Shown here: one piece after another, positions 23,767 to 33,072 of the stretch
How positions within the stretch are numbered: the first letter of the stretch is position 1
Layout of the letters: every line of letters starts with the position of its first letter
Assembly: GCF_003031265.1 (NCBI RefSeq)
Contig: NZ_CP019966.1
Location: forward strand, 372,001 to 436,000
Source of the DNA: Rhodopseudomonas palustris
GTDB taxonomy: Bacteria; Pseudomonadota; Alphaproteobacteria; Rhizobiales; Xanthobacteraceae
Length of the DNA stretch: 64,000 nt
Direction: 5' to 3'
Position numbers and translations under genes: made by a program
Notes under the pieces: model-generated
What the model saw: only the letters and a program-made list of their open reading frames with translations
Database searches by the model: none
Told to the model about the DNA's origin: nothing

Positions 23767-24642
23767 ATGATCGATCGGCGTGAATTGATGAAGGCGGCGA
23801 CGGGGCTTGCCGGCTTAGGCCTGTTCGGCAGTTCCGCCGCGCTGGCAGCCGACGCACTCGCCGATACGTGCGCGCGGCTCGAAGCCGGCAGCAGCGGCCG
23901 GCTCGGTGTCGGCGTGCTCGATACCGCCAGCGGCCGCATGATCGGTCATCGTCTCGACGAGCGGTTTCCGATGTGCAGCACCTTCAAGGCGCTCGCCGCC
24001 GGTCTGGTGCTGGCGCGGGTCGACCGCAGGCAGGACAACCTCGATCGCCGGGTCAACTACACCAAGTCGGATCTCGTCACCTATTCGCCGGCGACCGAGA
24101 AACACGTCGAGGGCGGCATGACGATTGCCGAGCTGTGCGAGGCCGCGGTCACGCTGAGCGACAACACCGCCGGCAATCTGTTGCTGGCGAGCTTCGGCGG
24201 GCCGGCCGGGCTCACGGCGTTCGCGCGATCACTCGGCGACGAGACCACGCGGCTCGATCGCATCGAAACGGAACTTAACGAAGCCCTGCCCGGCGATCCG
24301 CGCGACACGACCTCGCCGCGTGCGATGGCGCAGACTCTGCGCGCGCTCACGCTGGCCGATGCCCTATCGGCGACGTCGCGCGCGCAACTGATTGCTTGGC
24401 TGAAGGCCAACACCACCGGCGGCACCCGCCTGCGGGCCGGCGTGCCGTCCGGCTGGGTCGTGGCGGACAAGACCGGCACCGGAGACCACGGCACTGCCAA
24501 CGACGTCGCCGTGCTCTGGCCGCCGCAGCGTGCGCCGCTGATCGTCACGGTGTATCTCACCGGCGCGGCGGTGGCGCGCGATCAGCAGAACAAGATCATT
24601 GCGGATGTCGGCGCCGCGGTGGCGGACGCCATGCGCGGCTGA
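23767..24642 (+). CDS. class A serine beta-lactamase, Tat-exported
   Basis: A 291-aa enzyme that hydrolyses beta-lactams in the periplasm. Catalytic elements are all present: STFK (Ser71, Lys74 here), SDN at 131-133, the omega-loop Glu in ETELNEALPGDPRDTTSP and KTGTGDHGTANDVAV with KTG at 235-237. The N-terminus DRRELMKAATGLAGLGLF is a twin-arginine signal. A cysteine (Cys70) precedes the nucleophile, as in some carbapenemases, but the partner Cys after KTG is absent. No AmpR/PenR-type regulator lies next to it. Chromosomal resident gene by its GC and codon use. Confidence 0.93.
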   Translation: MIDRRELMKAATGLAGLGLFGSSAALAADALADTCARLEAGSSGRLGVGVLDTASGRMIGHRLDERFPMCSTFKALAAGLVLARVDRRQDNLDRRVNYTKSDLVTYSPATEKHVEGGMTIAELCEAAVTLSDNTAGNLLLASFGGPAGLTAFARSLGDETTRLDRIETELNEALPGDPRDTTSPRAMAQTLRALTLADALSATSRAQLIAWLKANTTGGTRLRAGVPSGWVVADKTGTGDHGTANDVAVLWPPQRAPLIVTVYLTGAAVARDQQNKIIADVGAAVADAMRG

Positions 24643-28242: not shown

Positions 28243-28317
28243 GCTCCCTTCGTCTAGCGGTTAGGACGCGGCCCTCTCAAGGCTGAAACAGGGGTTCGAT
28301 TCCCCTAGGGAGCGCCA
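28243..28317 (+). tRNA. tRNA-Glu (anticodon CTC)
   Basis: A full cloverleaf can be drawn: acceptor GCTCCCT/AGGGAGC, D-arm TCTAGCGGTTAGGA, anticodon stem CGGCC/GGCTG with the 7-nt loop CTCTCAA (anticodon CTC), T-arm AGGGG TTCGATT CCCCT, discriminator G and encoded CCA. It lies directly before the retron islet. tRNA 3' ends are common integration sites. Confidence 0.96.
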
Positions 28318-28433
28318 TTCTGCATTGCTGAGAGTGTTCTCGCCGTCGCCGTCATGGCCTTAGAAGACGAACTGTTCAGCAGCGTAAGAGACTGGCGTTC
28401 CCAATGAACGTCCCCAAGATCTCTTCAACTGGG

Positions 28434-30089
28434 TCAACTAGTGCAGCCGTCACCAGGCGGCTTTTCAGCAAGCCAAGCTGCAAGAACATCCATGTGAATT
28501 GCGAAGTCTCGCCCCTCGTCAGGTCCGCCTTTGTGAATGATCCCCACAACCGCACACTGGCTGCTAAGTAGAGGGCCGCCAGACATCCCTTGGGGAAGCT
28601 TTTGAGTCACTTCAATGAGTCTGACGCCATGTTGGACCGTAAGTGAGCTCACCTTTCCATCTCGGACATTAAGCCTATCACCTGGGCCGAAGCTCGGATA
28701 ACCGACTGCTGTTAACTCCTGTCCGACTGCGACAGGTTGATTAGATCTATCTAGTTCGAAATACTCAGTACTCGGAATTGTGTGCTCCAAAAGAGCTAGA
28801 TCTCGATCTTTGTCTCGATTGACCACTCTAACCGTGAACTCATTGGCTCGTTTGCTCGGGTGATAGAGCTGAGCTTCTTTCACACCTTCGACGCAGTGGG
28901 CTGCCGTAATCAAGCCCACGCCCTTGAGGAAGAAGGCGGTCCCCTGCGCCTCCTCATGTTCAACTACCCAAACCGCTCGGTCGCGAATCTCTTCACTTGT
29001 CGGCGTTACCGCGATCCTTGCCTCTGGAAAGTTCTTGTTGAATCGAACCGCAATTGCCCGAAATACCGGGTCAGACTGTCCTCGAATGTGGGCTAGCCAG
29101 GCAATCTTTCCTGCGAGATGGGCGGCTAACTTGGAAGTGCCGCCGTGCTCGCTCTCGAATTTGTCCTGCGCTCCTTTTTTTCCGAGTTTCTCAACAGAAT
29201 AGAGCGCGGCTCGGATATTTCGTACGTAACGCCGATCAACATTAAGCAGCTCGTTGACCTTGATCCCTGTTACCATTCGGCGGGAGTTTCGATCCGCGTA
29301 ATGTGCTTTATCCGCGTTTAACGAGAAACCATTGCTTGCGATGATGTTGCGAAAGGGCTGGATAAGAAGGTCGGAGTTGAAACGTCCCAATGGGGCAGCG
29401 GCTCCCTCAAACATCGCGGCCATAGGTTGATGGCTCGAAAACGTTATATCGTCCGCATAGCGCGTGTAGATGCAGCGCATGCTCTTAGCGAAAACCAGTA
29501 GCTCCTTATCCAGGCGAAAACAGATCATGTTCGAGAGGATAGGGCTGGTCGGTGCCCCCTGCGGCAAATGGCCATTGTGGCAACAAAGCCTCGCGATAAG
29601 CCTTGATACGCGGCCATCGATATTGAGTGCTTCTAGAACGCCCGCAACTCTGTTCTCGGTTATGGAAGGAAAAAAGTCTTTCAGGTCGATATTGAGTACA
29701 AAACGTTTGCGAAGGTGAGCTTGAGCGTTTGTTTTTACCGACTTTCCAGCAACGAAGCCGTGTACTGGATGCCGTACGCAATAGAGTTGGTCGAGCAGCG
29801 GAAGGAGCTTCCTCTGAAGGTGCTTTAGACGATCATCCGGCGCTTCTATTATCCTAGTTTTCCCCTTCCCCTTCGCGATCTCGAATTGGTGGTACATTCG
29901 TCGACGAAACCACCAGATTTTGATCATCTCGCGAGGAGACATCTGTAGATACAAAAAAAAGGCCGTTTCGTCAGCAAGCTCGGCCGGTATTGACGTGCGT
30001 ATACTTGAGTTGAAGAGGGGCAAAGTTACGAGGTCTCCCTTCCAATCACGCCATGCTCGCATTGCGCATGTGGCGCGCACGATTTGCAC
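28434..30089 (-). CDS. retron-type reverse transcriptase fused to a trypsin-like serine protease
   Basis: A 551-aa fusion. Residues about 60-340 are a reverse transcriptase with retron hallmarks: FEIAKGKGKTRIIEAP, the region X motif NAQAH (121-125), NIDLKDFFPSI (133-143), PQGAPTSPILSN, the active site YADD (211-214) and the region Y motif VTG (273-275). Residues about 370-540 form a trypsin/HtrA-like protease with His in GLITAAHCVEG (His398), Asp in DRDLALLE (Asp430) and Ser in GMSGGPLL (Ser503); the whole triad is intact. The first codon is GTG at 30089; ATG at 30062 is an alternative. Local GC is low (23 of 60 bases at 28741-28800). Retron surveys report RT-protease fusions as an anti-phage class; the protease is the likely effector. 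Confidence 0.88.
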   Translation of the reverse strand: MQIVRATCAMRAWRDWKGDLVTLPLFNSSIRTSIPAELADETAFFLYLQMSPREMIKIWWFRRRMYHQFEIAKGKGKTRIIEAPDDRLKHLQRKLLPLLDQLYCVRHPVHGFVAGKSVKTNAQAHLRKRFVLNIDLKDFFPSITENRVAGVLEALNIDGRVSRLIARLCCHNGHLPQGAPTSPILSNMICFRLDKELLVFAKSMRCIYTRYADDITFSSHQPMAAMFEGAAAPLGRFNSDLLIQPFRNIIASNGFSLNADKAHYADRNSRRMVTGIKVNELLNVDRRYVRNIRAALYSVEKLGKKGAQDKFESEHGGTSKLAAHLAGKIAWLAHIRGQSDPVFRAIAVRFNKNFPEARIAVTPTSEEIRDRAVWVVEHEEAQGTAFFLKGVGLITAAHCVEGVKEAQLYHPSKRANEFTVRVVNRDKDRDLALLEHTIPSTEYFELDRSNQPVAVGQELTAVGYPSFGPGDRLNVRDGKVSSLTVQHGVRLIEVTQKLPQGMSGGPLLSSQCAVVGIIHKGGPDEGRDFAIHMDVLAAWLAEKPPGDGCTS

Positions 30090-30130
30090 AGACTTTAGCT
30101 CTTACGCCGCAGTTACTACAGCGCGTATGC

Positions 30131-30360
30131 GATGGGAGACCTCGTACATAAAGTCTATCAAGAGTGCGGCTTGAGATCCAGACTTCATCGCGGTCTTGCT
30201 GCGTGAAAGCTATACGAGGGTTGATTGACTTGCCCGCAGATGAAATCAGACTTCTGTCGTACCGTAGGGGCCTTCGTCGGGTAGCGGACAGAGTCCTCGC
30301 GGCCGACGTTGCCAGAAATGATTCCTCGCAGTGCCCCAAGGTCATCCCTAGTCTCCCAGC
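30131..30360 (-). ncRNA. candidate retron msr-msd non-coding RNA
   Basis: A retron RT needs an upstream template RNA on the same strand, and 30090-30534 has no convincing gene. Candidate outer arms are GCTGGGAGAC (30351-30360) and GTCTCCCATC (30131-30140), 9 of 10 paired, the second 41 bp before the RT start. A TAG follows the 5' arm, as near the branching G of known retrons. Inside are hairpins at 30275-30308 (CGTCGG/CCGACG plus GGAC/GTCC) and 30181-30247 (9 bp, one bulge, then GCGG/CCGC). The arms alone could arise by chance in 480 bp, but the 13-bp hairpin is less likely to. Exact borders are uncertain. Confidence 0.38.
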
Positions 30361-30534
30361 TCTACCGACGTGCGTTTTATCCGACCGTAGAATCATGTTG
30401 CTCGAGTTCGGGGAGGGGAGTTGTATGTAACCGGTGGCATGCTGGCGGGCGTTAATTAATGTCTCGGCCTCGCCAAGCATCTTAGCGAAGCGATCCTCGG
30501 GTCATGCCCCACATCCGATGCACAAGCCGTGAAT

Positions 30535-33072
30535 TCAGCGCGGGCTCTTCGACCCCTTCACCCCCGCCTCCCGCTCAATCTCCCCCGCCACCCCCGGTGC
30601 CTCATCCGCCGCCACCGGCCGCGAAAACACGTAGCCTTGTACGAAATCGCAGTCGAAGGCGGTGAGCAGGTCGACCTCGGCGTGTAGTTCGGCGCCTTCG
30701 GCGACGACGCTCATGCCGAGGCCGTGCGCCAGCGCGATGATGCCGCCGAGCAGCTTGCATTTCTCCGGCACGGTGGCGATGCCGTCGACGAAGGTGCGGT
30801 CGATCTTCAGCCGATTGAACGGCAGCCGCGTCAGATAGCCGAGCGACGAATAGCCGGAGCCGAAATCATCGAGCGCGAGCTGGATGCCGAGCTTCGACAG
30901 CGCCGCGAGCGTCGTGCTGACTTTCTGCTTGGTGTGATCGACGAACAGATTTTCGGTCAGCTCCAGGCACAGCAGCTCGGGCGGCAGGCCGGTCTCGGCC
31001 AGCACCGTGGCCACCACCTTTTCGAAATCGCCGTTCCAGATCTGCGCCGGAGACACGTTCACCGAAATGGTCCTGGCCGGCAGTCCGGCGTCGAGCCAGC
31101 CGCGCATCTGCTTGCAGGCGTCGCGCAGCACCCAATGGCCGAGGTCGACGATCAGGCCGGTGGTTTCCGCGATCGGAATGAACTCCGCCGGTGAAATCGG
31201 TCCGCGCTCGGGATGGCTCCACCGCAGCAGCGCCTCGAAACCGATCACGCGCCCGGTCTTGAGATCGATCTGTGGCTGGTAGTGCGTATTGAGCCCGCCG
31301 CTGTCGACGGCGTGGCGCAGGCGCCGGCCGAGGTCGAGCTTCTGGTCGACCGCCTCGGCATACATCGGTTCGAACAGCTGCGCCCGGCCGCGCCCGGCCT
31401 CCTTCGCCATGTAGAGCGCCAGGTCGGCATTGCGCGAGGCCTTCTCGGCCGTGGCGCCATGCTCTGGTAACAGCGCGATGCCGATGGTGGCGCCGATGCA
31501 GGCTTCGCCTTCGGCGAGCTCGACCGGGACCGATAGGTTGGCGATCAAACGGTTCGCGAGCGCGGGCGGTGCTTCGCCAGAGGTGGCTGCAGTGCTGATC
31601 AGCACCGCAAATTCGTCGCCGCCGATCCGGGCAATAAAGGCCTGCGGACCCAGCTCCTGCCGCAACACTCTGGCGACGTGAATCAGCAGACTGTCGCCGG
31701 TGGAATGGCCGAGCGAATCGTTGACCTCCTTGAAACGGTCGAGGTCGATCAGGTACAGCGCGTGCTGTCCGTGGTCCGGGATCGGGTTCTCGAACAGGTC
31801 GGCGAGTCTGCGTTTGTACAGCGCGCGATTAGCCAGGCCGGTCAGCGGGTCCGTATAGGCAAGCTGCTCGAGCCGGCGCTCCGCTTCCTTGCGATCGGTG
31901 ACGTCTTGCGCGGTGCCAATCAGGCCGATGACCGTCCCGTTCGAAATCTCCGCCTTGCAGATGATGGCCAGATCGCGCGGCGCGCCATCGGTGTGCAGAA
32001 TCCGGATGTCGGTGGCTTCCGTCGTGCTGGTGCGAAGGACGCGCTTCTGGATCTTCAGCAGGCGGGCGGCGTCATCGCCCAGAAAGTAAGGCTCCGTGCC
32101 TTCATAGGTCGGTTCGAACGCATCAGGCTCCAGGCCGAGCAGCTGGTAGAGTTCGGGCGACCACACCGTTCGGCCGGTGTCGAGCCGATGAGTCCAGGTC
32201 CCGATCCGGCCGAGCCGATGCGCCTCTTCCAAGGCTCCGGTGCGCTGGTCGAGCAAGGTTCTGGCGGCGGCGAGCTGGGTGATATCACTCGCGGTGCCGC
32301 GATAGCCGAGGAATGTCCCGTCATCGGCAAAGATCGGCTTGCCGCTGGTGGAGATGATGATCCGCGAGCCGTCATTGCCCATCGAGGTGTAGACGAAGTC
32401 GCGGAACGGCCGATGGGCTTCCATGTCTTCCCGGTGCAGAGCCATGGCGGCTTCTTCTTCGGGTGCGTAAGCAAGCTCCCATCGCGCCCGACCGCCGGAG
32501 GCGACGGTTCGCAGCGCCACATTGCCGTCGAGTGATTTCGGATAGGGCAGCAGCCGATGGTCGGGGCCGGACTCCCAACACCAGTCCGACGCGGTGCTGA
32601 CGAAATCTGCCAGACGCTGTTCGCTCTCGGCTAATTGCCGGAGAGCAGACGTCTCGGGAGTTGCATCCCGGACGATGCCGAACACCCGCTGTACCTGACC
32701 GTTCGCATCGAACTCCGGTTCGCCGTGCACGACGCAATCGAGCAGGCGACCATCGGGCTTGATGAGTTTGGTTTCCACCGCAAACGGCCGGCCCTCCGTC
32801 CAGCACGCGGCGTAGTGAGCTTGCAGGATCGCGTGGCTGTCGGTGAGGTCATGATCGTGAGCCGGGGTGATCGCGGCGCAATCGTCGGGCGTTTCGGCGT
32901 CGTAGAGGGAAGCGAATTCGGCCGACATCCAGAAGTCGGTGGCGGCGCCGCTATGCGACTCCCAATACGCGGCGCGTGCCATCCGCATCGCGCGACGCAG
33001 CGACCATTCCTGATGCCACCCCCGCGGTTCTCGTGGGTATGGCTGCCGCAATGACACTCCACGAACGGTCAT
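30535..33072 (-). CDS. PAS-GGDEF-EAL cyclic-di-GMP signalling protein
   Basis: An 845-aa cytosolic protein. Several PAS/PAC segments fill residues about 30-405, ending in the PAC-like GLIGTAQDVTDRKEAERRL. They are followed by a GGDEF domain (RIGGDEFAVL, intact catalytic motif) and an EAL domain (GFEALLRW, with ENLF and DDFGSGYSSL metal-binding blocks). Both synthase and phosphodiesterase sites look competent. The RxxD inhibitory site before GGDEF is absent. No membrane spans are seen. The sensory input is unknown. Host-like GC resumes here, marking the right edge of the retron islet. Confidence 0.92.
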   Translation of the reverse strand: MTVRGVSLRQPYPREPRGWHQEWSLRRAMRMARAAYWESHSGAATDFWMSAEFASLYDAETPDDCAAITPAHDHDLTDSHAILQAHYAACWTEGRPFAVETKLIKPDGRLLDCVVHGEPEFDANGQVQRVFGIVRDATPETSALRQLAESEQRLADFVSTASDWCWESGPDHRLLPYPKSLDGNVALRTVASGGRARWELAYAPEEEAAMALHREDMEAHRPFRDFVYTSMGNDGSRIIISTSGKPIFADDGTFLGYRGTASDITQLAAARTLLDQRTGALEEAHRLGRIGTWTHRLDTGRTVWSPELYQLLGLEPDAFEPTYEGTEPYFLGDDAARLLKIQKRVLRTSTTEATDIRILHTDGAPRDLAIICKAEISNGTVIGLIGTAQDVTDRKEAERRLEQLAYTDPLTGLANRALYKRRLADLFENPIPDHGQHALYLIDLDRFKEVNDSLGHSTGDSLLIHVARVLRQELGPQAFIARIGGDEFAVLISTAATSGEAPPALANRLIANLSVPVELAEGEACIGATIGIALLPEHGATAEKASRNADLALYMAKEAGRGRAQLFEPMYAEAVDQKLDLGRRLRHAVDSGGLNTHYQPQIDLKTGRVIGFEALLRWSHPERGPISPAEFIPIAETTGLIVDLGHWVLRDACKQMRGWLDAGLPARTISVNVSPAQIWNGDFEKVVATVLAETGLPPELLCLELTENLFVDHTKQKVSTTLAALSKLGIQLALDDFGSGYSSLGYLTRLPFNRLKIDRTFVDGIATVPEKCKLLGGIIALAHGLGMSVVAEGAELHAEVDLLTAFDCDFVQGYVFSRPVAADEAPGVAGEIEREAGVKGSKSPR

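What the first reader, a model, noticed from the sequence alone, without database searches (positions are those of the whole stretch)
28434..30089. Retron reverse transcriptase fused to a complete trypsin-like protease
Seen: one 551-aa ORF with retron-specific NAQAH and VTG motifs, YADD, and then a protease with His398, Asp430 and Ser503 in the right order. Known: retrons pair an RT and a template RNA with a toxic effector, and RT-protease fusions have been reported in surveys but are hardly characterised. Inferred: the protease is released or activated when phage disturbs the RT-DNA complex, cutting a host or phage protein. Its target would be new biology. No separate effector gene is seen beside it.
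Basis: partly seen in the sequence, partly recalled or inferred. Interest (0 to 1): 0.92.

Follow-up and report, generated by a model that had tools for sequence, protein, structure and literature searches.

The report
Retron reverse transcriptase fused to protease

Summary
The ORF encodes a retron reverse transcriptase joined to an HtrA-like serine protease with an intact His-Asp-Ser triad. This is a known architecture, PADLOC retron type XI (604.6 bits), so the fusion itself is not new.

Corrections and additions. It shows compensatory changes across 11 alphaproteobacterial loci, has no Rfam match, and of 200 related genomes only the three with the close fusion have it. (2) The likely start is TTG at 30023 (529 aa); in relatives the RNA's a2 arm overlaps ribosome-binding site and start codon. 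(3) RT-protease fusions are not one clade in the RT tree (AU p = 0.0034), and other lineages carry different RNAs with a similar a1/a2 layout: effector domains appear to be swapped. (4) The gene sits in a low-GC insert at a variable site beside tRNA-Glu.

Most likely mechanism, inferred: RT-msDNA holds the protease inactive until a phage disturbs it; the protease then cuts an unknown protein and stops the infected cell.

The parts
28434..30023 (-).
   Evidence: start inferred from relatives
29292..29879 (-). Reverse transcriptase core (RVT_1), with YADD
   Evidence: motifs
28539..28943 (-). Trypsin_2 / HtrA-like serine protease domain
28896..28898 (-).
   Evidence: invariant in 29 of 29 aligned; aligned with DegP
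28800..28802 (-).
28581..28583 (-).
30024..30148 (-). Predicted msr-msd non-coding RNA
30131..30146 (-). a1 arm of the terminal stem
   Evidence: 16-nt arms, 94% complementary to 30027-30042
30027..30042 (-). a2 arm; in relatives it overlaps the ribosome-binding site and the GTG/TTG start
30130..30130 (-). Candidate priming guanosine, in the invariant TCGCA directly after a1
   Evidence: position and conservation; role inferred from the review PMC6868368
30104..30124 (-). Conserved hairpin, putative msr recognition element (7 bp)
   Evidence: 100% of cells paired, 2 of 7 pairs with changes on both sides
30047..30077 (-). Putative msd hairpin (7-bp base, variable upper part)
   Evidence: 83.1% of cells paired, 1 of 7 pairs with changes on both sides
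30152..30160 (-). Possible extended -10 promoter element TGATAGACT, 5 nt before a1
   Evidence: TGNTA seen in 11 of 13 loci printed; function not tested
28243..28317 (+). tRNA-Glu (CTC) that borders the insert
28321..30540 (.). Inserted low-GC segment (0.527 against 0.655 for the window); the right edge is uncertain by about 60 bp

Best explanation
This is a self-contained retron of the RT-protease (type XI) architecture: one short RNA plus one fusion protein. Shown here by sequence, comparison and modelling: the RNA, the RT, the protease and its triad, and no neighbour gene shared by most of the close relatives. Inferred: the RT binds the conserved hairpin of the RNA, starts DNA synthesis from a guanosine beside the a1/a2 stem and makes a short msDNA. 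The RT-msDNA complex keeps the HtrA-like domain in an inactive shape or assembly. A phage product that binds, copies, cuts or displaces the msDNA removes this restraint, and the protease cuts an unknown host or phage protein, which stops growth of the infected cell. In this alphaproteobacterial lineage the a2 arm also covers the ribosome-binding site and, in relatives, the start codon, so folding of the RNA should limit synthesis of the fusion protein.
For: PADLOC RT-Protease_XI 604.6 bits against 335.6 for the next retron type. The best solved RT relatives are retron Ec67 and Ec86. RNA: fold z-score -4.16; 27 pairs, 93.9% of cells paired, 11 pairs with changes on both sides against 4.5 in shuffles, 0 of 500 shuffles reaching the observed value on each of the five measures. 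Linkage: the RNA model hits 3 of 200 genomes, the same three that carry the fusion at 62% identity or more; all three were among the sequences from which the model was made, so the informative part is the silence of the other 197. The best inverted repeat ends at -30 to +10 of the start in 33 of 33 RT-protease loci; 28 of them tested against random windows, 28 of 28 against 27 of 130. Triad invariant in 29 of 29. Gabija genes beside the fusion in L010, with matching neighbours in L011 and L020. Precedent: in the RT-Toprim fusion of retron-Eco2 the isolated effector domain is toxic but the full fusion is not (PMC12405507, section 11 read).
Against: No msDNA, phage defence, toxicity or proteolysis has been measured here. 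The candidate priming site is TCGC, not one of the forms listed in the review (TAGC, CAGA, CAGC, GAGC, ACGC). The msd hairpin has only 7 consensus pairs and is the weakest helix. In the window itself the proposed TTG start is predicted mostly unpaired (0.14), although its ribosome-binding site is paired (0.79). The fusion L005 in the same family (39% identity) and the other distant fusions searched give no R1 match. No other defence gene was identified next to this copy, but flanking genes of the window were not scanned with PADLOC.
Confidence: 0.6

Rival explanations
1. Retron with a non-suicidal protease: once triggered it cuts a specific phage protein (for example a virion or replication protein) and the host cell survives.
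For: HtrA-like relatives include proteases with broad or narrow specificity (general knowledge); nothing in the sequence tells host from phage substrate. Eco2 is described as blocking phage protein synthesis, so the output of retrons is not uniform (PMC12405507 section 11).
Against: Two abstracts seen describe killing of infected hosts or abortive infection (PMC12548924, PMC12887533), and the isolated Eco2 effector is toxic to the host.
Confidence: 0.15
2. The protease acts on the fusion itself or on another zymogen: it cuts the linker or a second protein that is the true effector.
For: Trypsin-like proteases fused to defence proteins activate a partner nuclease proenzyme in other systems (PMC12799240, abstract and passages).
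Against: Among the alpha loci compared no gene is shared next to the fusion, apart from Gabija and its neighbours in three similar islands; a partner elsewhere in the genome cannot be excluded.
Confidence: 0.15
3. The upstream RNA is mainly a cis translation control element and is not reverse transcribed.
For: The a2 arm pairs with the ribosome-binding site and start in relatives (start pairing 0.65-1.00 in 10 of 10).
Against: The layout is close to that of msr-msd; outside the alpha clade the terminal repeat ends 9-30 nt before the start, clear of it, in 18 of 20 loci (L023 and L036 are the exceptions).
Confidence: 0.07
4. A decayed or inactive copy.
For: A relative, L021, has two in-frame stops; in the window GTG at the usual start has become GTA.
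Against: The window ORF is open, the catalytic residues are kept, and the a1/a2 end pair is a standard T-A pair where the nearest relative L010 has C-G.
Confidence: 0.05

Closest known systems
Retron type XI (PADLOC RT-Protease_XI)
   Same: Single gene, RT with C-terminal trypsin-like protease; 604.6 bits over almost the whole length.
   Different: The window's lineage forms its own RT clade (10 rows, 100/100) with an RNA that model R1 does not find beside the distant RT-protease genes searched. Whether PADLOC's own RNA models cover it could not be checked.
Retron-Eco2 (Ec67), RT-Toprim fusion
   Same: RT and effector in one chain; best solved relative of the RT (155.3 bits); a likely model for how a fused effector is held in check.
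   Different: The effector is a Toprim RNase there and a serine protease here.
RT-TIR retrons (type XII)
   Same: Second-best PADLOC type (335.6 bits); the RT of the RT-protease L023 falls in a set of four with the RT-TIR gene L035 (support 97).
   Different: A different effector domain.
HtrA/DegP and MarP serine proteases
   Same: Protease fold and triad.
   Different: No PDZ domain found by Pfam up to E 1; fused to an RT; 28 non-fused Trypsin_2 proteins from seven genomes fall together behind one branch (SH-aLRT 96) without any RT-fused domain.
Protease-nuclease modules of Avs, Lamassu, Hachiman and DRT (PMC12799240, passages)
   Same: Trypsin-like protease fused to a defence protein.
   Different: There the protease is N-terminal and paired with a nuclease gene; here it is C-terminal to a retron RT, and no conserved neighbour gene was found.

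Membership tests
Retron | RT with NAxxH (region X), VTG (region Y) and YxDD | tested here: met
   NAQAH, YADD and VTG in the window protein and in the alignment of 29; definitions from PMC6868368, passages
Retron | msr-msd RNA with 5' and 3' ends that pair over about 8-30 bases | tested here: met
   13 consensus pairs, 8 with changes on both sides, 96.5% of cells paired; definition read in PMC6868368 section 6
Retron | 1-3 msr hairpins with stems of about 7-10 bp and loops of about 3-10 nt | tested here: met
   One 7-bp stem with a 7-nt loop, 100% of cells paired
Retron | Priming guanosine at the inner end of a1 in TAGC or a listed variant | tested here: inconclusive
   Invariant TCGC at the right place in 11 of 11, but TCGC is not among the listed forms
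Retron | msd with a single long hairpin (about 10-50 bp) | tested here: inconclusive
   7 consensus pairs, 83.1% of cells paired, upper part too variable to align
Retron | Branched msDNA with a 2'-5' linkage | not testable with these tools
   needs nucleic acid isolation
Retron type XI | Effector and operon structure of the type: RT fused at its C-terminus to a trypsin-like protease, single gene | tested here: met
   PDLC02960 604.6 bits, residues 36-541; [quoted passage not shown]
Retron type XI | Anti-phage activity | not testable with these tools
   needs phage plating
HtrA/DegP proteases | Trypsin-like domain with His-Asp-Ser | tested here: met
HtrA/DegP proteases | C-terminal PDZ domain | tested here: not met
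   no PDZ match up to E 1; so 'HtrA-like', not a member

The most novel reading that the evidence does not exclude
'Type XI' is not one system. At least three retron lineages (alphaproteobacterial, clostridial, pseudomonad) with apparently unrelated template RNAs carry the same kind of protease effector by domain exchange. In the alphaproteobacterial lineage the msr-msd stem itself masks the start of the toxic fusion gene, so the RNA is both template and translation brake. Triggering releases a cytoplasmic HtrA-like protease with a specific, so far unknown, essential target.
Probability: 0.3. Interest if true: 0.78.

Novelty: new member of a known kind. Interest (0 to 1): 0.52.

Why it matters
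In the open-access library searched the only statements on protease retrons that I saw are survey lines in two papers (PMC12405507, passage; PMC8867640, passage); most listed papers were not opened and the paper that defines the types is not held. A located and covariation-supported candidate RNA turns the question into a two-part expression test in a laboratory strain. A specific cytoplasmic protease under msDNA control would be an unusual output for a retron and perhaps a switchable protease tool.

Tried and rejected
Led nowhere: model R1 finds no counterpart beside the distant RT-protease genes; the weak hit upstream of the RT-TIR gene in L035 (19.3 bits, E 0.08) is not claimed, and the weaker minus-strand hits of R1 at the same places are taken as the palindromic echo of the stem. 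No fold comparison was obtained. The model's coordinates were not in the Python box, so triad geometry was not measured.

Limits. The relatives come from a capped list (best 80 of 386). A2 holds 29 fusions; L005 was left out after an input error of mine, and L021, L025, L027, L053, L061, L064, L090 and L109 were not included. Start codons of several distant loci were chosen by me among in-frame starts. Only seven RT-protease proteins were scanned with PADLOC, each best to type XI; the others are called RT-protease by domain. Inverted repeats beat all 20 shuffles in 27 of 33 loci; L013, L019, L023, L026, L028 and L048 did not. Seventeen of 28 reached the 95th percentile of control windows. The sequences that made R1 match it by construction. 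RT trees used 93 of 108 and 72 of 108 rows; I dropped near-copies, long branches, poorly filled or low-scoring rows and, in the second, the broken L021. In the protease tree two rows labelled free (L161, L162) are the fusions L026 and L036 found again, and four RT-fused rows (L026, L028, L030, L031) lie on the free side of the weakly supported midpoint.

Full report
Observation. Its protein scores 604.6 bits against PADLOC RT-Protease_XI over residues 36-541; the next type, RT-TIR_XII, scores 335.6. Pfam finds RVT_1 and Trypsin_2 over their cut-offs. The closest solved RTs are retron Ec67 (155.3 bits) and Ec86 (126.9); the closest solved proteases are DegP-like. Thus the fusion is real, and it belongs to a named architecture.

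Protease. His376, Asp408 and Ser481 (529-aa numbering) are invariant in 29 of 29 aligned fusions, whose identity to the window runs from 29% to 74%, and align with the triad of DegP. The AlphaFold2 model has mean pLDDT 89.2 and pTM 0.73; most helices lie before residue 350, and residues 351-510 are mainly strands. I could not compare folds or measure the triad. From general knowledge, not from a call: the residue at the trypsin specificity position appears not to be Asp, so 'trypsin-like' describes the fold and not a cut after Lys/Arg.

The template RNA. An inverted repeat of 16-nt arms, 94% complementary, lies at 30027-30042 and 30131-30146. The RNA that it bounds, 125 nt as cut here, is found in 12 relatives: eleven whose proteins are 58-74% identical (L010, L011 and L020 have the same RNA) and L021 at 43%. 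It folds with z = -4.16. On 11 distinct sequences the three helices keep 93.9% of cells paired, and 11 pairs have changes on both sides against 4.5 in shuffles; none of 500 shuffles reaches the observed value on any of the five measures, and sliding the partners lowers pairing to 32-52%. The covariance model finds this one place in the own genome, with a weak echo on the opposite strand. In 200 relatives, searched with stricter filters, it hits three genomes, the same three that carry the fusion at 62% identity or more. Those three were in the training set, so the test is of specificity. Rfam has no counterpart. The layout largely fits the published description of msr-msd RNAs (PMC6868368 section 6): terminal pairing, a 7-bp hairpin, a second hairpin, and a guanosine right after a1. 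That guanosine lies in TCGC, a form the review does not list, and the second hairpin is short, so priming site and msd extent are proposals.

Start codon and a2. In the ten relatives the start codon (GTG in nine, TTG in L018) is at the end of a2, and the ribosome-binding site lies inside a2. In the window the base has changed to GTA, and the facing base of a1 is T, a standard pair where the nearest relative has C-G; the next in-frame start is TTG at 30023. Predicted pairing of the start codon is 0.65-1.00 in ten relatives; in the window it is 0.14 for TTG but 0.79 for the ribosome-binding site. A translation brake is therefore an inference, weaker for this copy than for its relatives.

Other RT-protease loci. 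In 33 loci (near-copies and the broken L021 included) the best inverted repeat near the start ends between -30 and +10 of the start codon; it beats all 20 shuffles in 27 of 33. With random windows of the same loci as control, 28 of 28 against 27 of 130 end there, and 17 of 28 reach the controls' 95th percentile. The clostridial and pseudomonad groups show their own, different-looking RNAs, not found by R1. In the RT tree the window's clade of ten alphaproteobacterial fusions is solid (100/100), but all 33 RT-protease rows held together are rejected (log-likelihood 77.8 lower, p-AU 0.0034; bootstrap not settled). L023 falls in a set of four with the RT-TIR gene L035. In the protease tree 28 non-fused Trypsin_2 domains fall together behind one branch (SH-aLRT 96), without any RT-fused domain. 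Together this suggests exchange of effector domains among retron RTs, not repeated capture from HtrA; outgroup sampling is thin.

Setting. The gene lies between tRNA-Glu (28243-28317) and a GGDEF-EAL gene (named from its sequence), in a segment of GC 0.527 against 0.655. Of 15 other genomes of the genus, 12 gave the syntenic place: two have only about 61-66 bp between tRNA and the next gene, six carry other content of 366-1186 bp, and four show no tRNA match within the stretch held. None of the 15 has a match to the fusion at E 1e-20. Of 385 genomes sampled in the class, only the own one has a match at E 1e-60. A 73.6% relative sits on a Haematobacter massiliensis plasmid (the same species as L020), and L010, L011 and L020 carry the fusion next to genes that PADLOC calls GajA and GajB in L010 (895.6 and 820.6 bits). 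This is a rare, apparently mobile, defence-like distribution.

Mechanism. Retrons with a fused effector have a worked example: in Eco2 the isolated Toprim domain is toxic while the full fusion is not, and its active site is needed for defence (PMC12405507 section 11). By analogy the protease here should be restrained by RT-msDNA and freed or reshaped by a phage trigger; for Eco8 the trigger is a phage SSB (PMC12887533 passages). The analogy and the substrate are inferred.

Known or new. The paper that defined the retron types is not held, and PADLOC's msr-msd models were not available, so I cannot say whether this RNA has been predicted before. Searches for type XI or protease retrons led only to survey lines in the papers that I opened. 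I therefore call it a new member of a known kind, with an RNA located here.

Noticed in passing
L021:4956-6400: Relative in Epibacterium ulvae with two in-frame stops, one between RT and protease and one in the protease, while the RNA is kept (84.1 bits): a decaying copy.
   Followed up: partly
window 28318-30540 and L114-L125: The 3' side of tRNA-Glu is a variable insertion site in the genus: two near-empty sites and six with other content among 12 loci.
   Followed up: partly
L120, L122: At the same site, short ORFs that resemble prevent-host-death type antitoxins (seen, named from recall).
   Followed up: no
L010:6699-10923: GajA and GajB (Gabija) directly after the RT-protease gene; matching neighbours in L011 and L020.
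   Followed up: yes
L035:1038-1191: Weak match of the RNA model directly upstream of an RT-TIR gene (19.3 bits, E 0.08): may be a distant relative of the RNA or chance.
   Followed up: no
L090, L109: Two of 21 relatives found in viral contigs carry the protease domain too.
   Followed up: no
window 23767-24642: ORF that reads like a chromosomal class A beta-lactamase (from its sequence, not searched).
   Followed up: no
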